Shown in pieces: positions 9,248-64,000 of a stretch of 64,000 nt of DNA. Position 1 is the first letter of the stretch. Every line of letters begins with the position of its first letter. This DNA comes from Polychytrium aggregatum. Lineage: Eukaryota > Chytridiomycota > Chytridiomycetes > Polychytriales. The stretch is from contig NW_026516233.1 in the NCBI RefSeq assembly GCF_025602895.1, positions 124,001 to 188,000 on the forward strand. The letters run 5' to 3'. The notes below the pieces were generated by a model that made no database searches, had not been told where the DNA came from, and saw only the letters and a program-made list of their open reading frames with translations. Both the position numbers and the translations under genes were made by a program.

Positions 9248-9682
9248 GGCTGCCCTTGTTGCCCTTGGCCCGCGGCCTGCTGTCCAGCTGCCTTGGGGTT
9301 GATCCTGCGCGGGTCCGACCTTTGCTTTCGCTTGCAAATCCGACCCTATTCTCTCTTCCCCGCTGCGACCCGCAGTCCTGAGCCCAGCACCCTTATCAAC
9401 ACCTGCCATCTCGGGGCCTTCCGCTATTCCCTCCTGCCTGGCTCGATCGTCCCCCCTCCTCTCCCACTCTCGACCCAACTCGATCGCCCTCAGACCCGAT
9501 CCTTCTCCAGCCCGACTACTCAACTCCCCCCGGTCGTCCCTTGGCCCTGTTTCCATTTGAACTACCGGCAATCTCATCCGCCGCCGCTGTTGCTGTTCGC
9601 GATCGTCATTTGCCACAATCGTCTGGCTTTGTGCATATCTACGCTTACGAGTACCTTCACGCCGTCGCCTTCCTGCCAAGCC

Positions 9683-11281
9683 ATGGGTTATCTGGACCTT
9701 GGCGACTCGTACTATGTCGCCCAAAAAATCAACTGCAGCGAGGTACTTGGCCTGCTGCCGGCTAGCCAGACCTCCCTCAGTTCGTGCATCCACGTCTACG
9801 TCCCCGATCGCCCACAAGAGTCCCAGCCTGCATCCATGTACAAATATCCTGCCCGCAGCCGTCCGACCCAAACCCAGCACTTGAGCCTGGAGCGACGCAG
9901 CAAGCACCGCCCGGTCTCCTCACCTGCTCTTGCGCATTCCTCGTCCAATCCGACAATGGCCACAGCCCGCGAACGCTCTGCTACTGCTGCTGCCGCTGCT
10001 GCCGCCGCCGCTGCTGGCTTCTCCGGCGCCGATGGCGGTGGTATGCGCTCAAGGTCGCTGTCGCTCGAGAGTCCTCTCATCCAGCGAGGCCACAGCAGCA
10101 GCTCGGTCGGCAGCTCGGTCGGCAGCTCGGTCGGCAGCTCCACAGCCTCCGCGTATCATTGTGCTGCCGCTTCCGTCTCCGCCACAACCTGTTCCTCGGC
10201 TGTGGCCCATCCAACCTCCGCCCCACGCTCGCCTGTGTCTCCTTCCTCGGCGTATTCGGCCAGCGAGCCCTTCCCGGTTGAGCTCCTCTACCGACCGCAC
10301 TCGGCCTGCAATGGCCGAGAGCTCGCCGCCATGTGTCTCGATCGTGGCCATGCCGATGGTCTACCCCGCCGCTATCCCTTCGATGTCGAGCGCCAGCTCT
10401 ATCGGCGCTCGTTCATGAAGCTGACCGAGGTCGGGCGGCCCCTGCACCATCGCGCCGTCATCACCTCCTTCATGCTCTACATGTTCATCATCCACGCCGG
10501 TATCGAGGTTGGCGAGTGGCCTGCCGAAATCCTGGACACTCGCACCTTCTACCCTTGCCCTCGCACCGCCAGCAACGGCCACCCCATCCTTCCCAAGGCC
10601 AGACAGAGGAGCACCCCCCGGCGGCATCCCTTCCGGAAGCGCCCGTCGCCTCTGCGGAATGTCAGTGTCGGCCTTGACCTCAACCATGACTTTGACCTCG
10701 ATCGCGATGCCGCCGCCGGCGTTGCGACCCCGTCCAAGAACGGCACCGGCTTGCCGAGCCAGGACAACTGGAGCCCGATCGAGTTCATTACCGACTTTTA
10801 CGACTTTCCGGACCGACCGTTGTCGCCACTGCCAACCGAGATCGACGCCGAGCACAACGCCTACGGCCTGCCGCCGCTGTCATTCTCCTTCGCCGATCTC
10901 CCGTCCAGCCCCGCCATGCACCACCTCCCGACCAGTCCGACCAGTCCGACCAGCCCAACCCATCCGCTCGCCTCATCGCCTGGTCTCAAGCGCCTGCTTC
11001 CTCGGTCGACCCACTTCCGCCACGTCTTTCTGGACGAGCCCGCGACCAAAGGCAGCGGCCAGCGTGGCAAGTCCTCGGCCGTCGATAAACGATTCTCCTT
11101 GGACTCCAAGTTGTCGAGCTCCACAAAGTCCTCAAAGTCGTCCTCCGCCGCGGCCGACTCGGCTTGCCGGGGTCAAAAGATCAAGGACATCAAAAACGAG
11201 ACGCGGCAGAAGCTCCATCGGATCAGCATGAAGTTCAACTCGTTTTGGACGGGGTCCAAATCCCTCAAGGTCTCGGCGTAG
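9683..11281 (+). CDS. Disordered protein with YPFD-ER-YR-KL-RP module (paralogue family, member 3)
   Basis: Single-exon protein of 532 residues from the ATG at 9683 (MGYLDLGDSYY). A downstream ATG at 9956 is possible, and the frame is also open upstream but only from a TTG. An Ala run near residue 100 and Ser-rich segments precede the module at about 230-290: RYPFDVERQLYRRSFMKL, then VGRPLHHR, then a hydrophobic helix and HAGIEVGEW. This is the closest match to member 1. Downstream come Ser/Pro-rich stretches, including SPTSPTSPT-type repeats, and a basic-hydrophobic C-terminus (RQKLHRISMKFNSFW). Function unknown. Shared module, shared tail and proximity support origin by duplication. Confidence 0.65.
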   Translation: MGYLDLGDSYYVAQKINCSEVLGLLPASQTSLSSCIHVYVPDRPQESQPASMYKYPARSRPTQTQHLSLERRSKHRPVSSPALAHSSSNPTMATARERSATAAAAAAAAAAGFSGADGGGMRSRSLSLESPLIQRGHSSSSVGSSVGSSVGSSTASAYHCAAASVSATTCSSAVAHPTSAPRSPVSPSSAYSASEPFPVELLYRPHSACNGRELAAMCLDRGHADGLPRRYPFDVERQLYRRSFMKLTEVGRPLHHRAVITSFMLYMFIIHAGIEVGEWPAEILDTRTFYPCPRTASNGHPILPKARQRSTPRRHPFRKRPSPLRNVSVGLDLNHDFDLDRDAAAGVATPSKNGTGLPSQDNWSPIEFITDFYDFPDRPLSPLPTEIDAEHNAYGLPPLSFSFADLPSSPAMHHLPTSPTSPTSPTHPLASSPGLKRLLPRSTHFRHVFLDEPATKGSGQRGKSSAVDKRFSLDSKLSSSTKSSKSSSAAADSACRGQKIKDIKNETRQKLHRISMKFNSFWTGSKSLKVSA

Positions 11282-26000: not shown

Positions 26001-26066
26001 CTGGCTCGGAGGCAGCGATGCAGGGCCCGGTGATGGATTGGATTCCTTGGGGAGTCTTTTAAACAT
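23021..26066 (-). CDS. HROB: HROB-like (MCM8IP) homologous-recombination OB-fold protein, 6 exons
   Basis: In animals HROB loads and activates the MCM8-MCM9 helicase for DNA synthesis after strand invasion. Exons on the minus strand: 26066-25416, 25190-24201, 24050-23828, 23629-23504, 23370-23285 and 23125-23021, giving 726 residues with all phases consistent. The N-terminal 535 residues are Ser/Thr/Pro-rich and disordered. They carry three short F-x-F boxes (QKFKFTSG, QFQFKPTH, LKFKFSDI). Next comes KFPGPAGALPKL, the signature entrance of the HROB domain, then a W-containing helix (MESWRAMLQG). The OB fold follows: RLIVLIKEVKQSE, then TVKDPFG, then GEVQGTIDKSAL, then ALELQQVPLF, then LIIRQENLVCF. 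The match spans five exons, so orthology is likely. It is transcribed divergently from the Myb gene. Confidence 0.85.
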
Positions 26067-26536
26067 CGGATACGCAGGACAGGGCGACCGAGTCAGCGAC
26101 AGGCACGAGGGGCGCCAGAGGAGCACCGATTTATCAAGGCCGGACTCTGCCGGATGCAGATCTTGCTTTCACGGGCCCGAGATGCCGAGCGACGGTTGCC
26201 GGTGCCGACGGGAGCTGTCTGCGACAGAGCCGGAAGAAGCGCAGATGGCGAGAGAGAACAGAGTCTCTGCCCAAGGCCGCTTGTTTGGATATTTTCGCCG
26301 CGCCCTGGCGGCGCCGGGAATCGCCTCTGGCTCAGATCGGCTGTCTCCAGATCCACATTGATCTATCGCATCTGCATCGAGCCGCCGCTGCCCGGGCTAG
26401 ATCCAGCTGGCCGAGTGCGCTCAACTGCTGCATCCTCTCTCGCCCACGGTCTGCCACTGATCATTTGGAAGCCTTTCGGTCTGCCCTTCCCTCATCCGCT
26501 GCCCCGCTCACCTTGCATCAACTTCATCTCGTGCTC
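26067..26536. other. Divergent promoter region of HROB and the Myb-repeat gene
   Basis: 470 bp separate the two ATGs. The interval must hold both promoters. No clear TATA box was seen on either strand. Confidence 0.55.
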
Positions 26537-28252
26537 ATGACATCCATAGCGCATCGATCGCTCGCCCAGATGCGGGCCGGCAGCCCTCTCGTTGGATTGC
26601 TCAAATCCAGCGCACTACGAACAATCCCGCACGCTTGCACCGGATACGCCGCAGCTTCATCACTCCACAGCACACCCGCCACCTCGGCACCTCGCCCAAA
26701 ATCAGCCCCACCCAAGTCATCCCAGGACTCGGAGCCGTCATCGAATTCATCGTCTCAGGCACCGAGTTCGGGCCAGAAGCGGACCAGAAGTCGCAAGAAA
26801 TCCAAGGAAAGCACAAAGCCGATCGAGCCACCGCCGGTCATTGGCCAGCCTACCAATTTCTGGTCCTCTGCCGAGGATCTCAAACTACTCGAGGGCCTGA
26901 GCCAGTTCGGCCCCAACCGCCTGGCCGACATTCGAGCAGCGTACTTTCCGCAGTATACGCTCGGCTCCCTGCAGGTCAAGCTGCGCAATCGGCTGCTTCC
27001 GCGGCTCTATGCCAGCCGGCATCAGCTATGGACCGAGGAAATGGACCAGAAGCTGCTCGATGCCGTCAAAAAGTACGGCAAGAGCTCGTGGCTGCTGATC
27101 TCGGAGGAGCTTGGGTTCTGCACAGGCAAGCAGGCCCAGAAGCGCTACTTCACCATCTCTCCGGAGCGGGTGCGGGCCATATGGACGCCCGAGGAAGACA
27201 AGACCCTCGTCGAGGCCTTCCAGAACGCCCGGGGCAAACGGGGCATCTCCGTCTTTATCGCCAACAATATCTTGACCCACCGCAGCCCGTACGATGTCAA
27301 CGAGCGGTGGAAGGTCCTTCGCAGTTCGCTGCGTCCTGGCGACAACACCGTCACCGACTCGCACGTCAAAGAAACGCTCACGGAGATGACCAAAGACGAT
27401 GCCTCCGCGACGATGATGGCCACGCCCGTCAGCGACAAGATCTGGTCCGAGGACGACGACAACCGTCTCATGGAGGCCTATGTCAGCGCATCCGAGTATC
27501 TGAGGCAAATCGGCAACACCAGCTATCTGGGCGCCCGCGAGTCCTCCATCTACCAGGTCATCCGCGCCGGTCTCTTTCCGGACCTGACCTGGCAGACGCT
27601 TAGACAGCGGATCTATCTGCTATTCTACGTCCCCGCCAACTCGATCGTCCTGCGCCTGTCGTCCAAGGTCATCCACGACATTGTCTACGCTACGTGCATC
27701 CTCGGCCACAGCAACAGCCGGGTTGCCGAGTCGCTCGGCTGGGACGAGGCGTATCTCGACAAGGTTCTGCACGAGCTCTGGTACTCCAAAAGTCCGATCT
27801 ACACTGTTGGCTGCGGCACCTCCATCCCAAATGCCACAGACTGGACGACGCCATACGATGATGAAGCCATCCTGGAGGCCCTCGATTCCGATACGGGTCT
27901 GCGTCCGCCGCTGCTGCAGCTCTGTCGCCGACTCGGCCACATGAAGGTCTTCCATCTAGCCAACCGAATCAACTTTCTCTCGAACCGCAATTTCGAGCAC
28001 TGGAACGATAAGGACGACGAGGCTCTGTACCAAGGCCTGCTCAAGTACGACACGAAATTCGGCGACATTGCCCAGCACATGTTTCGGCGGCGATTCAAGG
28101 CTCTGCATGTCAAGCTGCGATATCGACATTTGCTACTCAACGGATTCCTTCAGCGGCGGGCAGACCAAGATGACTTGGCCGAATCGAAGCATGAGGTGCG
28201 GGCTCCCGATCTTCCCGAAAGCCTCGCTGACGATCAGGGTGGTCGCGAGTGA
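26537..28252 (+). CDS. Six-repeat Myb/SANT-like protein with possible mitochondrial presequence
   Basis: Intronless 571-residue protein. Six W/F-x-x-x-x-D/E-D-x-x-L units with a distal helix-turn-helix pattern are visible. They begin near residues 108 (FWSSAEDLKLLEG), 164 (LWTEEMDQKLLDAV), 214 (IWTPEEDKTLVEAF), 302 (IWSEDDDNRLMEAY), about 448 (TTPYDDEAILEAL) and about 496 (HWNDKDDEALYQGL). Myb repeats of this kind bind DNA; targets are unknown. The first 50 residues (MTSIAHRSLAQMRAGSPLV and following) are rich in Arg, Ser and Ala with no acids, like a mitochondrial targeting peptide. A basic cluster at 81-90 (KRTRSRKKSK) could instead be a nuclear signal. The ATG at 26537 is the first in frame; the open frame upstream starts at a TTG. 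Confidence 0.8.
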   Translation: MTSIAHRSLAQMRAGSPLVGLLKSSALRTIPHACTGYAAASSLHSTPATSAPRPKSAPPKSSQDSEPSSNSSSQAPSSGQKRTRSRKKSKESTKPIEPPPVIGQPTNFWSSAEDLKLLEGLSQFGPNRLADIRAAYFPQYTLGSLQVKLRNRLLPRLYASRHQLWTEEMDQKLLDAVKKYGKSSWLLISEELGFCTGKQAQKRYFTISPERVRAIWTPEEDKTLVEAFQNARGKRGISVFIANNILTHRSPYDVNERWKVLRSSLRPGDNTVTDSHVKETLTEMTKDDASATMMATPVSDKIWSEDDDNRLMEAYVSASEYLRQIGNTSYLGARESSIYQVIRAGLFPDLTWQTLRQRIYLLFYVPANSIVLRLSSKVIHDIVYATCILGHSNSRVAESLGWDEAYLDKVLHELWYSKSPIYTVGCGTSIPNATDWTTPYDDEAILEALDSDTGLRPPLLQLCRRLGHMKVFHLANRINFLSNRNFEHWNDKDDEALYQGLLKYDTKFGDIAQHMFRRRFKALHVKLRYRHLLLNGFLQRRADQDDLAESKHEVRAPDLPESLADDQGGRE

Positions 28253-48526: not shown

Positions 48527-51500
48527 ATGAGCGACGAAGAAATGTCTCTGGTCAATTCGGAAGCAGCGGCCTTCCAGCCGCCTGCGTCCTTTGTCCAGCG
48601 CTCTCAGGCCCGGCTTGCTCGGCTCCACAAAACCAAGATGGGCCGAGACAAGTCAGTGTCGTCCCCGTCGCTGCTGGATCCTTCAACATCGGCACCGACA
48701 CCGCTGAAATGCGCAGATGACCACCCAAAGAGGATCAAGGCCAGCTCCACCACTCAGCTCTCCGCCTCAAGAGCGAGCCTGTCCTCGACACCGTCGACAC
48801 CGTCGACGCCCAAGACCCCTCCCCGTCCGTCGCCTCGCCCGGATCCGGCTCGATCGTCCGTTGGCTCATCCCACAAACGCGTGCGCTCTTCCTCCAACCT
48901 CGCCTTGCCCTCGTCCAAAGCGGCCGCACCAAGTATCGCACCCTCCAAGGCCGTGCTCGAGGTCGCCAGGCTGGCCGAGAAGCGCGCGGAACGGCGATTG
49001 ATGCAGTTCGAGACACGCAGATATCGCAGCAGCTTGACCGAGCGGGATGCCAAGACACTCGAGTACAGGTCCACCATCGACGGCTTCACCGATATCTTCC
49101 AGAAGGACCTTGGAAAGGTCCACGCACAGATCCTCAAGTCGCGGAATCAGGATCGAGTACTTTCATACGACAATCCGGACGACCGTATCCGGGTCTGCGT
49201 TCGGAAGCGACCCATAAACAAGAAAGGTCAGCGGCAGGAGCGATGCGGTGATTTGACATGGTGTCATTTGGCGGGCTGCCGCCGTGTAGCGATTCAGCAG
49301 CATATCATGCGGTGCATGATACGATAGGATACGCTCGTTGCGCTCGATGCTCCGGTGGCTGTCTCTGTTGCTCGAACGGACATCAGCCAAGCATTCGCAC
49401 CCCAACGGCCTCACCTTCCCATCCGCCTTTCTTTCGTTTTCGCTTCCGTTATCACTTCTGTTTCACTTTCACTTTCACAGAGATTGCTGAAGGCTCCTTC
49501 GACATCATCACCACGGCGACGGCCTCCTATCCCTATTCTCACATCTATCTGCACGAGCCCAAGATCAAGCTGGATCAAAGCAAGACCATCGACACCCACA
49601 GATTCCTCTTTGACCACGTCATTGATGACCAGTCCTCGAACGAGCAAGTCTACAAGATGGCCGCTCGGCCGCTGCTCCGACTGTTTCTCGATGGCGGCAA
49701 AGTGTCGCTGTTCGCATACGGCCAGACTGGTTAGGCACCTTTGTTCTCTTCCTGTGCAGTATCCGTCAGTCGCCTTGCCGCAGTGATTGCTGTAGCTCGA
49801 CATGCTGTCCTCGGCAAAGCTGGCACAGATCGGAAGAATCGGCAAATGCCTACCGCCGTGCATGGTTGATCCCGACCGACTCTCCCACACTGCTCCCATC
49901 CTGCTCCCACACTGCTCCCAGGCAGCGGCAAGACCCACACCATCTTTGGGAAGCCCAAGGATCCCGGCGTCTACTACTACATCTGCCAGGATCTGTTCGC
50001 CTCACTTGCTTCGCCTGCCTCGCGCTCCGAGAAGCCAAGGCAAGGCCACGGCACAAAGTCGAGTCTGAATCCAAGTTCGAATGCGAATGTGAATGTGAAT
50101 GTGAAGCAGGATCTCCGCTACTCGGTCGAGGCAAGTTACTTTGAGGTCTATGGAGGCAAGGCCTACGACCTTCTCAGCCATGAGCGCTCCCATCCCCAGC
50201 GCAAGCGAGTCCAGTTGCTCGAAGACGGCAAGGGAGAGCTCAAGGTCGTGGGACTCACCGAAATCAAAGACATTGCGAGCCCCGAGCAGCTCTACCAGAT
50301 CGGATGCCACGGCAACCAGATGCGCACGACGGGCTCAACCGAAGCCAACGCCGAGTCCTCGCGGTCGCACGCTGTCTTCCAGATCACCTTGAAGCATAAG
50401 CTACGCAGGACCGATGGAACCTGGGCTACCAGCCCCAGAGTCTTTGGCAAGTTTTCACTGATTGATCTGGCTGGCTCCGAGCGCGGCGCCGACACCGGGG
50501 ATATCGACAAGGTCCGTCGATCCGAGGGCAGCGAGATCAACAAGAGCCTACTGGCGCTCAAAGAATGCATCCGGGCACTGCATCGCCGAAGCATGATGGG
50601 CGAGCACGCCGCCAACGAGGTTCATATCCCCTTCCGAGGGAGCAAGCTCACGCAGATTCTCCGAGACTCGCTCGTCGACCCAAAGTCGTGCACCGTCATG
50701 GTGGCGACCGTCAGCCCAGGGTCCAACTCGGCCGAGCACTCGCTCAACACCCTGCGGTATGCCGACCGAGTGAAGGAGTACAAAGGTAAAGGTGCCCGGG
50801 CAAAGTCGCTGCCGCCGACCCGACTGGTCATTGACGGCCCAGCGCAAACCACAAACAACAACGACCCCGAGTGCAGCGATGGCAACGACTCTGCCAGCCC
50901 ACAACACAACGACGGCGACGACGAGTCGATGATGAGCCCCAACGAGGTGGTTGGCGTCTGCGTTCCGTCGCTGGCTGAGATGCAGCTCCAGGACGATGAC
51001 GACGACGACGACGATGACGACGATGACAACAACAGCGACGAGGAGCAAGGCGATGAGAATGTGGCCGTGGCCGGTGAACTCGGCACGCTCAAGAGCTCCA
51101 TCCACCCTTCGGGCTCGAGCGACGACCACCCAGCGCATCCGGACCGCTCGGAGGACGAGTCGATGGGCTCGGAGAGGTCCAGTCCGGCCACCACGGAGCC
51201 AGTCGGCGGCGCACGCAGCCCACCACATGTCGACTTGGCAAAGACCAAGCCAGAGGCCAAGCAGGAGGGGTCGCGCTGTGCCGACGAAGCCTCCCGGGCA
51301 GAGCATGCAGATGGAGCCAAGATCCACGAGCCCGCACGCCCGCTGACGGCATCCTCGCTGCTCGAGGAAGAGGACGCCCTGATCAACTACCACATCTCGA
51401 CGCTCACGTCCAACGCCAAAATCATCCAGGACGAGGAGCGGCTGCTGATGTCGGTGTCGACCGAGGGATACGACATTGACGAGTACATTGACGGACTGGA

Positions 51501-51609
51501 TGCCGTGCTGGCCACGAAGATGCAGATGCTGATAGAGCTGCAGACGAAACTGGGCCAGTTCCGCCGCCACGTCGAGGAATACGAGCTGCAGGAGGGAGAC
51601 CGGCTTTAG
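48527..51609 (+). CDS. Kinesin-13 family microtubule depolymerase, 3 exons
   Basis: Exons 48527-49226, 49481-49729 and 49922-51609 encode 878 residues. The motor domain is internal (about 220-585), the hallmark of kinesin-13. It is preceded by a Ser/Pro-rich arm and a basic helical neck (LEVARLAEKRAERRLMQFE). Motifs in order: RIRVCVRKRPINKKE, P-loop GQTGSGKT (314-321, split by intron 2), switch I ESSRSHAVFQI, switch II LIDLAGSERG, then HIPFRGSKLTQILRDS and SLNTLRYADRVKEYK. These enzymes use ATP to peel tubulin from microtubule ends at spindles, centrosomes and flagella. The C-terminal part has an Asp run (about residue 677) and predicted coiled coil near the end. The ATG at 48527 is the first compatible with the family; the frame upstream is leader. 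Confidence 0.95.
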
Positions 51610-60238: not shown

Positions 60239-61438
60239 GGCATGAGAGGACGATGGGGAGTTCGGCGTTGGTGGTGTGCGGAGATACAGGACCTGCAGAC
60301 GATGGGTAGTCCAAGGGAGAGCAATGGGATCGGCTGGAGAGTTAATACAACGACGAAGCCGTGGCTTTGCCCGGTGTACACTATGCCTATGCAGGGCAGG
60401 CAGCTGTTTTGAGCCACCCCAAAGACGCAATCATGGTGGGGACCGGAATTGCAGCAGCCCGGCAAGTGGAAGCCGGCCGATTTGCCGACGGTGCACTCTG
60501 CGAGACTGGCCATGGTTTCGGGCAACAATAAAGTACGGCCGTGCAAGTGCGGATACCCTATACTCCTGCCAGTGGGCTCTGTGGTCGGGCAGGAAGTGAG
60601 GTGCTGAGGATGGGAGGGAGGGAGCTGACCTTGCGTCCAAACGAATGGCAGCGGCTCGGGCGTCGTGGGTCGAAGGAAAAAGGGCCGGCTTGTGGACAGG
60701 GATTCGTGGAGGTCAGCGCATGCCCTGCGGTCAGTCGGTCAGTCAGTCAGTCAGCGAGCCGAGCCGGAGCAGCCGGTCGGTGGGAGGGATGGACGGAAGA
60801 CGGAGGGGATGGACTGCAACCCGGCAGAATCGCTCAACAGCCAGCGCTGCGTTGGATGCAAGCCAAGCCAGGGCCGCACCACGAGCCGAGACAGCCCCGA
60901 GCGCGCCGCTCGCTCGCCCGCCGCTCTCGTGCCGTCTCGGCGACACGGAGTGCGAGGCTCGACTGCCACGATGCTGACCAGCCCAGTCCATCAGAGCGAC
61001 CATTCGCAAGCACTGCGGCAGATGCAGCTCCGGGTCATGGCCAGCGGTCATGCCGGGTTGGCTGGTCCTGCCGGGCTCGTCGTGGTATGCGGCGGGGGAA
61101 GAGAGTGTTCTCGCCGCCGATCTCGGTGGGCCGCTGGTTGGATCCGCCACAACGCGGCCGGCTCGAGCCGCTCCAGCATGGTGGCCCTGGCAAGCTCGGT
61201 GCAGTCTGGGCGGCCCTGGGCAGCGTCGCTGTCGGTGGTGCTGGCTGTGACGCCTCGGGTGGCGACTGAATCGCTGTCTCGAGTGCGAGGGAGCATCCTC
61301 GACCGAGGACAGTGCCGTTAGGCAGGGATGAATCCGTGAGCGCCGGGGGTCTGGCCACGGCACCGATCTCGATCTCGATCTCGATCCGGCGTCGCGCTGT
61401 CAAAAAACACCAAGTGTATATTGAGAATCCGGGATCAT
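60239..61438. other. Intergenic region up to the transposon
   Basis: Contains a (CAGT)n run near 60735-60755; otherwise no gene or RNA feature seen. It holds the promoter of the Spo7-like gene at its left end. Confidence 0.5.
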
Positions 61439-62062
61439 TACAGCGTATCCACCAAAAAACGGGACACCCAGGGTTTTGACCATTGATCAATATTTTGTTA
61501 CCCAATACCATCGCGCGCTGGCCATGACCATTCGCCACACAACCACTCTCCAGAGGAAAGTATCACTCTCACTCTGCCACACTGCCCTACAGCGAGCAGG
61601 TCTCTCTCACAAGAGGGCAACACACCTCTACAAGTCCAAGCGACTGGATGAGCGAGTGGCACAGTTCAGGGACCAGGTCCGCTCCATCGACCCACGACGA
61701 TTCGTTTTTGTCGACGAGACAGGGATCAGGAAATCCATTTTCCCTCTCTACGGATACTCACCGAAGGGTGCTCCGCTTCGCCAGCGCAATCGCATGAAGC
61801 ACAAGTCTGTCTCGGCTGCATTTGCCATCAACCACTCTGGTGTGCTGCATCGCATGTACATCCCCACATCATTCAAGACACACTCGATGGTCGAGTTCTT
61901 TGAGCGAGCGACCTTCCCAGATGACTCTGTGATTGTGATGGACAATGTCAGCATGCACAAGACAAGGGCTGTCCTGGACTGCATCGAGCGCCGAGGATGG
62001 TCAGTGATCTTCACCCCACCTGCCTCGCCCGACTTCAATCCCATCGAGAACTTCTTTGGGGT
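61439..62062 (+). mobile_element. Tc1/mariner-like transposon copy, decayed and interrupted
   Basis: Begins with a TA dinucleotide at 61439-61440, followed by a CAGCGTATCCACC terminal-repeat-like sequence; Tc1/mariner elements insert at TA and start with CAG. The transposase frame starts within about 40 bp, so the N-terminal helix-turn-helix region has been deleted. The element loses its coding frame at about 62062, where a different repeat-flanked sequence begins. No right terminal repeat is visible inside the window. Confidence 0.6.
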
Positions 62063-62087
62063 TGAGTCCCCACCGATTTGGGGTTGA
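61476..62087 (+). pseudogene. Tc1/mariner (DDE_3-type) transposase fragment
   Basis: A 203-codon frame; the first ATG is at 61524. It reads SLCHTALQRAGLSHKRATHL, then RRFVFVDETGIRKSIF (first catalytic Asp), VIVMDNVSMHKT (second Asp) and FTPPASPDFNPIENFFGV (third acidic residue region, the usual NPIEN box). These are the catalytic core motifs of the IS630/Tc1/mariner superfamily that cuts and pastes DNA at TA sites. The DNA-binding N-terminal half is missing. Right after NFFGV the frame enters a 21-22-bp direct repeat and stops at 62087, so the C-terminus is foreign. It is therefore a dead copy, unless spliced or complemented. Confidence 0.85.
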
Positions 62088-62117
62088 GTTCCTCCAATTT
62101 GGAGTTGAGCTCCCCAA
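62055..62117. repeat. 20-22-bp direct repeat, 3 copies, at the transposase/Fanzor junction
   Basis: Three successive units starting TTTGGGGTTGAG or TTTGGAGTTGAG and ending CCCCACCGA, CCTCCAA and CCCCAA. The first overlaps the end of transposase homology. It may be the left end of the inserted element. Confidence 0.75.
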
Positions 62118-62360
62118 TCACGCCGCCATTCTCACGCTCACATCCCTGGCTTGAACCTCTCGGCGATTTTTGAACAGGGTCACTTCCCCAACCAGCCCGC
62201 GCAGACGGGTTCCTGCTCTCGGGTATAAATGCCACACCTTCGTCCTGCTACTTTTTTTCCTTCATCTCGCCTTGATCTGATCATCGCGCTATTGTACGAT
62301 AAAAAAAAAGTCTCTGCTCTGACCAGTACCACTGGCAGGCATCCAGCATCCTCTGCCCCC
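62088..62360. other. Junction and promoter region of the Fanzor-like gene
   Basis: Carries the direct repeats, a TATA box at 62224-62230 and a C/T-rich leader with an A9 run at about 62301-62309. Confidence 0.55.
62224..62230 (+). promoter_or_regulatory. TATA box of the Fanzor-like gene
   Basis: TATAAAT in GC-rich flanks, 131 bp upstream of the ATG at 62361. Confidence 0.55.
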
Positions 62361-64000
62361 ATGCCTCCGAAGCGCAAGGGTACCGGTGATGGCCAGCCTC
62401 GGCCACCCAGGCCCAAGAAAGCCAAGTCACAGTCGGAGCCTGTCTCTGGTTCGTATTCTGACCCCACGCATGCTTGGTCGTCTGTTGCTTCGTCGCTCAC
62501 CACCACTGCTTCTGCAGATCCAATGGATGTCGATCCCACCGAGCCTGGTCCATCTACTTCCTCGAGTACCGGCAAGCGATGTCCCAAGTGCGATGGCACC
62601 GATCACGAACGTTGCAACACCAACAAGTGTCCCAAATACCGGCCCCTCAAGAGTTCTGTCGTCCCACTCGTGGATGGAAGGTCATCGGCCCCTCAGTTCA
62701 GCTGCTTCAAGCAGACCATGGATGGCTGTTGTCTCAATCCCGCTCTCCGCGACAAGATCCAGGCCACCGTCGAGGCCATGACCCAGATCCAGTTCGAGGC
62801 ATCCAGGCTGCTCAACCTGCACATCCTCCGGTGCATCGAGCAGGATCTTCCCGTCCCCGTCATCTCCAAGTCCACCCCTGCTTTCGTTCGCCAATGCTTC
62901 AAGATCGTCCAGGACGGTGCCCTCTCCCCGACCGGGGACAATGAGAAATACAACGAGCATCTGGTCGCTTCCTTTCGCGACTACCAGACCACTCGGCACG
63001 CAGACCTGCCTCCGGCCCCTCGTCTGCCTGATGGTGCTCACAGTCAGCTTCTCACACTGGCTGTCAATGCCTATGCCACCAACTGCACCACCCACCTCAA
63101 CCTGGCCTACTGGCGACTCCTTCGCCGCTTCTGTGCTGCTGTCTTCCCAGCCAACAAGCATAAGCACGAAGCCATCGAGGCCTGTCTCGAGCTCTTCGAG
63201 AAACCAGGGCAGACTCCACCCAAGGCCGATCTCGAGTTCCTCTATCCCGAGTTTGGCCACATCCTGGACGAGTTTCGGTACAGCAGCGACCAGGACCGCT
63301 TCCGGGCCCTCCATCGCCTCTCACACCATGTGAGAATCCTCGCCCGAGACAAGATGGTCGACAATGTCCACAAGTGGATCGACTGTGACATGCCCGCCCT
63401 CCGAGTCACCGAGCTGCAGCGCCAGGCCAAGCTGGACAGCCTCACCACCCAAGGCATTCCCTCCGACGACAAGAGGTTCACCAAGGCCAAGTCTGAGCTC
63501 GGCACCACCAAGTCCAAGATCAACAAGCTGGCATCCAAACTCAACTGGGCACTCAAGCAGCTCGCTCTCGACACTCCTCCGGCCGTGTGCACGATGGTCC
63601 CTCTGTGCACAGCCAAGGCCAAGTATGTCAAGATTGACACGGTCACTCTTTGGAATCTCCTGGGTCCAAAGAAGCGCCTTGGACTCACCCGGGACAAGCT
63701 CAAGGAAGAAGGTGAGGACGGTGTCAACAACCAGGATCGTCTCTGGCGCAGTTGCTTCAAGCTGCGTAGTTCCCTCTTCCAAGAGCGGGACGTGAACAAG
63801 AAGCTGTTCAACTACGAGATCAGCACCGATGGCATTGGATGCACCATCGGTCTCGTCAAGTTTCTGCCTCGAACCGATCACACCGAGACCATCGAGCCTC
63901 CTCCGACTGCCGAGCAGCGCATCCAGGCCATCGGCAACCCAGACCCCAACCGCACCACTTGGATTGGAATTGACCCAGGCGTCGGCTCCATCTTCACGGC
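62361..64000 (+). CDS. Fanzor-like (TnpB-derived) nuclease, N-terminal part, runs off the right edge
   Basis: Open frame of 546 codons from ATG 62361 to the window end without a stop or evident intron. A basic Lys/Pro-rich N-terminus (MPPKRKGTGDGQPRPPRPKK) could be a nuclear signal. A small Cys/His cluster follows (C74-x2-C77-x4-H82-x2-C85, plus C90). About 390 residues of mixed alpha-helical sequence come next, then FNYEISTDGIGCTIGLVKF (483-501) and finally WIGIDPGVGSIFT (534-546). TDG followed by a G-I-D-P-G-V strand is the approach to, and first catalytic Asp (Asp538) of, the RuvC domain in Fanzor and TnpB RNA-guided nucleases. RuvC-II, RuvC-III and the zinc ribbon lie beyond the edge. Fanzors are known from chytrids and travel with DNA transposons, which fits the adjacent transposase. 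Family call is good but unproven without the C-terminal half. Confidence 0.65.
   Translation, partial: MPPKRKGTGDGQPRPPRPKKAKSQSEPVSGSYSDPTHAWSSVASSLTTTASADPMDVDPTEPGPSTSSSTGKRCPKCDGTDHERCNTNKCPKYRPLKSSVVPLVDGRSSAPQFSCFKQTMDGCCLNPALRDKIQATVEAMTQIQFEASRLLNLHILRCIEQDLPVPVISKSTPAFVRQCFKIVQDGALSPTGDNEKYNEHLVASFRDYQTTRHADLPPAPRLPDGAHSQLLTLAVNAYATNCTTHLNLAYWRLLRRFCAAVFPANKHKHEAIEACLELFEKPGQTPPKADLEFLYPEFGHILDEFRYSSDQDRFRALHRLSHHVRILARDKMVDNVHKWIDCDMPALRVTELQRQAKLDSLTTQGIPSDDKRFTKAKSELGTTKSKINKLASKLNWALKQLALDTPPAVCTMVPLCTAKAKYVKIDTVTLWNLLGPKKRLGLTRDKLKEEGEDGVNNQDRLWRSCFKLRSSLFQERDVNKKLFNYEISTDGIGCTIGLVKFLPRTDHTETIEPPPTAEQRIQAIGNPDPNRTTWIGIDPGVGSIFT

What the first reader, a model, noticed from the sequence alone, without database searches (positions are those of the whole stretch)
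62361..64000. Fanzor-like RNA-guided nuclease gene in a fungal transposon
The uninterrupted frame ends in TDG...GIDPGVGSIFT, the lead-in and first catalytic Asp of a RuvC fold as in Fanzor/TnpB. It has its own TATA box and a basic N-terminus. Intact coding over 546 codons suggests a recently active element. Fanzor proteins use a guide RNA from the element's end, so a functional system would continue just past this window.
Basis: partly seen in the sequence, partly recalled or inferred. Interest (0 to 1): 0.88.

Follow-up and report, generated by a model that had tools for sequence, protein, structure and literature searches.

The report
Fanzor-carrying mariner transposon family
The window ends inside one of several hundred related copies of a jumping gene that carries its own RNA-guided DNA cutter (Fanzor), and the bases next to the copies suggest that this cutter helps decide which insertions survive.

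Summary
The finding is right in kind. The frame runs past the window and ends at window-equivalent 64730 as an intact 789-aa Fanzor1-type nuclease: DPG RuvC-I, Gly at the old RuvC-II site, alternative Glu714, C4 ribbon, RuvC-III Asp758. A weak profile match and a low-confidence fold both point to SpuFz1. It sits in a Tc1/mariner-type element (61439-64829) with transposase remnants. The genome holds at least 346 right ends of this family and 423 left ends of it and its relatives. The base before the left TA is T in 172 of 178 exact left ends (12.6% expected in the window); the mirrored right base is A in 57 of 308. So the flank motif is one-sided, TTA, like a TAM. A second family with a 96% identical transposase but a 43% identical Fanzor has T in only 5 of 11. 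The motif therefore seems to follow the Fanzor, though second-family counts are small. The noncoding right end is conserved and can form a hairpin. 'Recently active' is not shown. Nearly identical alleles carry different element sequences: gene conversion or assembly artefact.

The parts
61438..61440 (+). TTA at the left end: flank T plus the TA of the presumed target duplication; putative TAM
   Evidence: whole-genome counts (this copy has a variant left end and is not among the 178)
61439..61470 (+). Left terminal inverted repeat (TACA...AAAAAACGGGACA); the matching right end lies outside the window and ends at window-equivalent 64829
61476..62087 (+). Remnant of the IS630/Tc1-mariner transposase (DDE_3, E 1.7e-22); N-terminal part with the HTH and C-terminus deleted in this copy
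62224..62229 (+). TATAAA 137 nt upstream of the Fanzor ATG
   Evidence: TATAAATGC in 20 of 22 copies
62361..64000 (+). First 546 codons of the Fanzor1-type nuclease (789 aa in all; continues to window-equivalent 64730)
62580..62630 (+). N-terminal CX2CX4HX7C zinc-knuckle-like motif, also in family B (which has two)
   Evidence: not matched by Pfam
63972..63974 (+). Codon of the RuvC-I Asp538 (GIDPG)

Best explanation
This is a Fanzor1 RNA-guided nuclease carried as a second gene by a high-copy Tc1/mariner-type DNA transposon. Shown: an intact nuclease with the Fanzor catalytic signature, related terminal repeats, a transposase 5' of it in other copies, purifying selection on the protein, a conserved noncoding right end of about 100 nt that can form a terminal hairpin, and a one-sided TTA flank. 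Supported by small numbers: the flank follows the Fanzor rather than the transposase. Inferred: the right end is transcribed as the guide scaffold ending at ...GTGTA and reads into the flank as the guide; the complex cuts TTA-guide, which is exactly the empty insertion site; repair from the occupied homologue or sister copies the element back. Insertions at non-TTA sites would not be protected and would be lost, leaving the TTA bias. Short A-type copies without the nuclease but with the A right end would be served in trans.
For: Protein: Bao-Jurka motif D-X178-TS-X2-C4-X5-RD, DPG and alternative Glu714; Cas12f1-like TNB, E 3.9e-9; SpuFz1 profile E 0.0025; the top 6 of 335 PDB fold matches with E up to 10 (50 listed) are all Fanzors. 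Element: 346 A right ends and 423 left ends (A, B and relatives) with at most 1 mismatch, 0 reversed-pattern controls. Selection: dN/dS 0.30 over 231 pairs; nuclease intact to the end in 21 of 23 copies against the transposase in 7 of 23, 20 of the 23 having been chosen by nuclease similarity. Flank: T in 172 of 178 exact A left ends, mirrored A in 57 of 308 right ends. Family B: T in 5 of 11, Fisher p 6e-6, or 0.001 with A halved and two B pairs merged; counting only the 7 B left ends that pair with a listed B right end, T in 4 of 7, p 0.003, or 0.03 halved and merged. Right end: pi 0.017 against 0.073 at fourfold sites; hairpin z -1.8 and -2.1 in 2 A copies and -1.1 to -3.2 in 5 B-type sequences, left end +1.2. 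Precedent: SPu-1 has a conserved CA before its 5' repeat and a CATA TAM (PMC10432273, passages).
Against: No RNA, cleavage or transposition data. No empty site was found for 17 sites queried with both flanks (in one search only 40 of 755 candidates were scored), so the TA duplication is not proven and homing is not shown. B counts are small, and B also exceeds the background of T (5 of 11 against 12.6%). Right-end covariation is nearly absent because A copies are 96% alike. The right flank shows a slight A excess (18.5% against 12.6%, p 0.003). The longer RNA folds of the window copy are little better than shuffles (z -1.1 and -1.8).
Confidence: 0.75

Rival explanations
1. Same element, but the T before the left TA is an oriented target preference of the mariner transposase or an extra terminal base of the A element; Fanzor has no part in it.
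For: Tc1/mariner elements insert at TA (recalled) and can have further local preferences; B also exceeds the background of T (5 of 11, and L030); 6 exceptions in 178 could be mutations of an element base; counting only paired B copies and merging duplicates weakens the A-B difference to p 0.03.
Against: B carries a 96% identical transposase (synonymous distance of L038 to 7 A copies 0.066-0.10, A to A 0.031-0.091) yet has C, A or G in 6 of 11. The right flank does not mirror the motif.
Confidence: 0.27
2. The Fanzor is a passenger that is no longer active; the intact frames are young copies and the dN/dS is inherited from a few source genes.
For: Silent differences among copies are modest (mean dS 0.09); no polymorphic insertion was seen among sites found twice; 13 of 79 scored copies have a stop.
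Against: dN/dS is 0.30, the nuclease is kept in 21 of 23 copies where the transposase is kept in 7 of 23, and the right-end noncoding part varies about four times less than fourfold sites. The 20 copies taken by nuclease similarity bias the first count.
Confidence: 0.15
3. An unrelated RNase-H-fold protein that resembles TnpB only at the ribbon.
For: phmmer finds no PDB match at E 0.1 and none of the 7995 scored candidates of the large protein collection; only the TNB domain reaches a Pfam cut-off.
Against: All catalytic landmarks are in order and the fold search ranks only Fanzors at the top.
Confidence: 0.02

Closest known systems
SPu-1 / SpuFz1 of Spizellomyces punctatus (Bao and Jurka 2013; Saito et al. 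2023; passages of both read)
   Same: Fanzor1 in a TA-flanked element with about 30-bp inverted repeats, conserved noncoding right end, nuclease-free 'ghost' copies, and conserved flank bases before the left repeat that make up the TAM with TA (CA+TA there, T+TA here)
   Different: No transposase was found inside SPu-1 elements, and fewer copies are reported (42 loci with full or partial Fz genes, 134 ghosts); sequence similarity to ours is confined to the C-terminus (E 0.0025); TAM CATA against putative TTA
PGv-1 and PUl-1 (Bao and Jurka 2013; passages read)
   Same: Mariner-like transposase and Fanzor1 in one element; PGv-1 and three related elements share the 5' transposase part and differ in the 3' part
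   Different: PGv-1 and its three relatives are single-copy and their shared 5' parts about 78% identical; here the transposase is about 96% identical between two multi-copy families whose Fanzors are 43% identical
IS200/IS605 TnpB
   Same: RuvC and C4 ribbon nuclease whose guide is read from the right end; proposed cut-and-copy retention
   Different: Alternative Glu and DPG signature, longer N-terminus, DDE rather than HUH transposase

Membership tests
Fanzor1 | Motif D-X(125,275)-[TS][TS]-XX-C4 zinc finger-X(5,50)-RD | tested here: met
   D538, X178, TS717, C721/724/747/752, X5, RD758; motif text from PMC3627910
Fanzor1 | DPG at RuvC-I and alternative catalytic Glu, with the canonical RuvC-II Glu replaced | tested here: met
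   GIDPG, Gly667, Glu714; invariant in the 9 sequences; signature as in PMC10711439 (passages)
Fanzor1 | Sequence or fold relation to solved Fanzor1 proteins | tested here: met
   SpuFz1 E 0.0025, GtFz1 E 0.049 (C-terminus only); top 6 fold matches SpuFz and PpFz, from a model of mean pLDDT 50
Fanzor1 | Guide RNA transcribed from the right end into the flank | not testable with these tools
   Only indirect: right-end conservation and hairpin
Fanzor1 | RNA-guided, TAM-dependent DNA cleavage | not testable with these tools
   No experiment; the TTA flank is a prediction of the TAM
Tc1/mariner (IS630) transposon | DDE transposase with N-terminal helix-turn-helix | tested here: met
   In other copies: DDE_3 E 5.1e-24, HTH_23 E 0.0015, the latter below its cut-off; broken in the window copy
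Tc1/mariner (IS630) transposon | Terminal inverted repeats | tested here: met
   both ends share TACA and AAAAAACGGGACA; imperfect
Tc1/mariner (IS630) transposon | TA target-site duplication | tested here: inconclusive
   TA at both ends, but no empty site found

The most novel reading that the evidence does not exclude
A natural experiment in one genome: two families share an almost identical mariner transposase but carry Fanzors 43% identical, and only one shows the near-absolute one-sided TTA flank. This would mean that Fanzor cleavage, not transposase choice, filters which insertions persist, so RNA-guided retention or homing acts in a eukaryotic genome. The near-total loss of linkage beyond 20-50 bp between copies, and identical alleles that hold different element sequences, could then be the trace of break repair copied from other family members. 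(Lowered from 0.40 to 0.38 after the recount of paired B copies.)
Probability: 0.38. Interest if true: 0.85.

Novelty: new member of a known kind. Interest (0 to 1): 0.62.

Why it matters
Saito et al. 2023 state that the biological role of Fanzor remains unknown (PMC10432273, passage). In that species they found no transposase inside the element, so a conserved flank could not be separated from transposase preference. Here a transposase is in the element and is shared by two families with different Fanzors. That makes the question testable with two proteins and two guide scaffolds from one genome, each with natural guides written in its flank. It also offers two divergent Fanzor1 proteins, one with a predicted TAM.

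Tried and rejected
Empty sites: joined 90+90 bp flanks of 17 of the 20 nuclease copies, plus the right flank only of an 18th (L027, whose left flank came out empty), were searched in two calls; L021 was left out as a duplicate of L011 and L025 because my pattern missed its end. No uninterrupted site was found, but one search scored only 40 of 755 candidates. This is no evidence for homing, because in the two full-element allele pairs read the flanks are almost identical and no polymorphism would be expected.

Protein search of the 5.8-billion set gave no hit at E 0.001 among 7995 scored candidates. phmmer against the PDB gave none at E 0.1. Rfam gave only sub-threshold matches at the right end and none in the window.

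The structure model is poor (mean pLDDT 50, pTM 0.40); I use only that its best matches are Fanzors.

Covariation at the right ends: 1 of 52 pairs in A (26 sequences) and 2 of 33 in B (8 sequences; L029 left out because it lacks the right terminus) had a two-sided change. It neither supports nor refutes a structure.

Gene conversion among copies was considered as a result in itself and not claimed: consensus blending of noisy reads in a high-copy repeat could make the same picture.

Full report
WHAT IS THERE. The frame at 62361 is open to the window's end and on to a stop at window-equivalent 64730, giving 789 aa (L009). Landmarks: RuvC-I GIDPGVGS (Asp538), Gly667 in AFGNASW where TnpB has its Glu, alternative Glu714 in NEFNTSQVC, cysteines 721, 724, 747, 752, and RuvC-III Asp758 in NRDVNAARN. 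This fits the motif and the Fanzor signatures given in PMC3627910 and PMC10711439 (passages read). Pfam gives Cas12f1-like TNB, E 3.9e-9; NCBIfam gives only sub-cut-off matches. A profile of 9 sequences finds SpuFz1 (E 0.0025) and GtFz1 (E 0.049) by their C-termini. A low-confidence model (mean pLDDT 50) still has SpuFz and PpFz as its six best PDB matches, E 1.8e-7 to 5e-3. The protein is divergent: no direct phmmer hit.

THE ELEMENT. Comparing the window copy with 19 others gave its ends. Left: TACAG...CCAATAAAAAACGGGACA (window copy: TACAGCGTATCCACCAAAAAACGGGACA, from 61439). Right: CCCGTTTTTTTCTGAATAAAGTGTA, ending at window-equivalent 64829. Reversed, the right end reads TACACTTTATTCAGAAAAAAACGGGACA, so the ends form an imperfect inverted repeat. 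Between the left end and the nuclease lies an IS630/Tc1-mariner transposase: DDE_3 E 5.1e-24 and a weak HTH in a full copy. In the window copy its N- and C-terminal parts are deleted.

COPY NUMBER AND FORMS. With at most one mismatch there are 346 right ends (A pattern) and 423 left ends (a pattern that also finds family B and relatives), with no reversed-pattern control hit. The tool listed only the first 100 of each. Among those, 65 left ends pair with a right end within 6 kb: 55 at 3.3-3.8 kb (nuclease size), 4 at 1.08 kb and 6 at 255-353 bp; 35 left ends stayed unpaired. I read 20 of the 35. Six (L031, L036, L043, L045, L032, L047) have A-type right ends outside the pattern, L035 and the duplicates L037/L044 are truncated, ten belong to family B or its short relatives, and L039 was not classified.

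SELECTION. In 23 A copies read (20 chosen by nuclease similarity, 3 by their left end) the nuclease frame reaches its normal end in 21; L013 is shifted near the end and L031 gave no full frame. The 310-codon transposase is whole in 7 of 23. Mean dN/dS of the nuclease is 0.30 over 231 pairs of 22 copies, L013 included; of the whole transposases of A, 0.22 over 21 pairs. The 99-101 noncoding nt from stop to right end vary at 0.017 per site in 21 copies, against 0.073 at 286 fourfold sites of the nuclease and 0.031 in the 200 nt before the ATG. Part of that low value is the inverted repeat, and the stretch is AT-rich, so some of the contrast may be mutational. The last 54 nt fold as a hairpin in 2 of 2 A copies and 5 of 5 B-type sequences examined (L038 and four short copies), with different stem sequences (z -1.8, -2.1 in A; -1.1 to -3.2 in B), and not at the one left end folded (z +1.2).

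THE FLANK. Exact left ends TTACAGGCAATCCAATAAAAAACGGGACA number 172; with any other base in place of the first T, 6 (3 A, 2 G, 1 C). In the window 12.6% of NTA sites have T (2204 sites, both strands). After the right-end TA, A stands in 57 of 308. So the motif is TTA on the left only. The window copy has a variant left end and is not among the 178, but also has T. These counts contain haplotype duplicates: at 12 of the 17 sites queried with both flanks a second contig carries the same flanks with an insertion between them, for L022 a 32-kb one. In one such pair one copy has T and the other G (L023 and C119), so at least some exceptions are later changes or errors.

THE CONTROL. L030 and L038 carry a second family, B. 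Its transposase is 96% identical to A's (L028 against L030), and the synonymous distance of L038's to seven A copies (0.066-0.10) overlaps that between A copies (0.031-0.091). Its Fanzor is only 42-43% identical to A's, with synonymous distance above 1. Its right end is different in sequence. At B left ends (TACAGCC) the base before TA is T 5, C 2, A 2, G 1 in 10 sites found with a pattern that excludes G one base further out, and A in L030, the one such excluded site that I know: T in 5 of 11. Seven of the 10 pair with a listed B right end at 3.58-3.77 kb (T 4, C 2, G 1); for the other three none was listed, the list being capped at 40. With eight short B-type copies (T 4, A 2, C 2; one of them, L029, lacks the right terminus) T is 9 of 19. 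Fisher p against A: 6e-6 (5 of 11), 3e-8 with the short copies, 0.001 with A halved and two possible B pairs merged; 5e-5 without L030, 0.003 for the seven paired copies, and 0.03 for these with A halved and one pair merged. Of the 10 short A-type copies, 7 have the exact left end and all 7 have T; the other 3 have variant left ends not counted. That they lack the nuclease is judged from their size. Three further short A copies read (L032, L045, L047) also have T. Thus the T goes with the A right end and Fanzor rather than with the transposase, on small B numbers. This matches SPu-1, where two conserved bases (CA) stand before the left repeat and the TAM is CATA (PMC10432273, passages). PMC11423790 (passages) in one sentence swaps the TAMs of GtFz1 and SpuFz1; its later text gives TTAA for GtFz1.

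MECHANISM. Best supported: right-end RNA guides the nuclease to TTA followed by the copy's own right flank, i.e. the empty site; the cut is repaired from an occupied copy. The flank bias is then the trace of past survival. Transcription, cutting and repair are inferred, by analogy with TnpB (discussion passages of PMC10432273).

AN UNRESOLVED OBSERVATION. L011 and L021 share flanks with 0 of 668 and 1 of 3563 differences (and one 18-bp indel), yet the element between them differs at 98 of 3741 sites. L036 and L043: flanks 2 of 653 and 0 of 895 (with indels of 7, 7 and 9 bp); element 159 of 3364 plus indels of 243, 105, 21 and 6 bp. A truncated copy, L037/L044, differs at 1 of 2220, about 200 of them element. 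By length, 7 of 13 allele pairs differ by more than 100 bp, one of them by a 28-kb interruption; 6 differ by 19 bp or less. Among 21 copies, r2 between 141 common variants falls from 0.32 (under 20 bp) to 0.09 (20-50) and to about 0.05 beyond; transversions alone behave the same, and 7309 of 9870 site pairs show all four combinations. Either copies exchange short tracts at a very high rate, or the assembly blended reads of different copies inside the repeat. I cannot tell without reads. If it is blending, dN/dS and distances within the element are less exact, while flank bases should be little affected.

NOVELTY. Fanzor1 in mariner elements, even with a transposase, and 3' module exchange were described in 2013 (PMC3627910, passages). 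Searches of the held library for Fanzor with mariner, with TAM and target-site duplication, and with insertion site and transposase (listings) showed no title or abstract start on a same-transposase comparison of Fanzor flanks. Subscription papers are mostly not held, and of 82 papers that name Fanzor only 40 were listed.

Noticed in passing
L011/L021 and L036/L043; 13 allele pairs: Element copies at the same site on two nearly identical contigs differ as much as unrelated copies, and linkage between variants vanishes beyond 20-50 bp: ectopic gene conversion or read blending in assembly.
   Followed up: partly
62580-62630; L030 Fanzor N-terminus: CX2CX4HX7C zinc-knuckle-like motif near the N-terminus, once in family A and twice in family B; not matched by Pfam, and I recall no such part in SpuFz1.
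   Followed up: no
62064-62120: The lost transposase C-terminus is replaced by about three degenerate copies of a GGGGTTGAGTyCCyCCAATT-like unit; the C-terminal deletion recurs in 10 of the 20 copies.
   Followed up: partly
L022 and C14:63122-95200: On C14 the two flanks of the L022 insertion are 32 kb apart instead of 3.7 kb; L035 from C14 shows a truncated element whose new neighbour (309 bp) is identical to sequence right of the L030 element.
   Followed up: no
one search list: Of 13 scored copies with one internal stop, 11 have TAG and 2 TGA; whether these share one site was not checked.
   Followed up: no
window 9248-11278 (+), 49870-51606 (+), 26063-28249 (+): Host-type genes: Zds_C domain, kinesin motor, Myb domains (4 of the 10 frames scanned had any match, the fourth an EPL1 match below its cut-off).
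   Followed up: no
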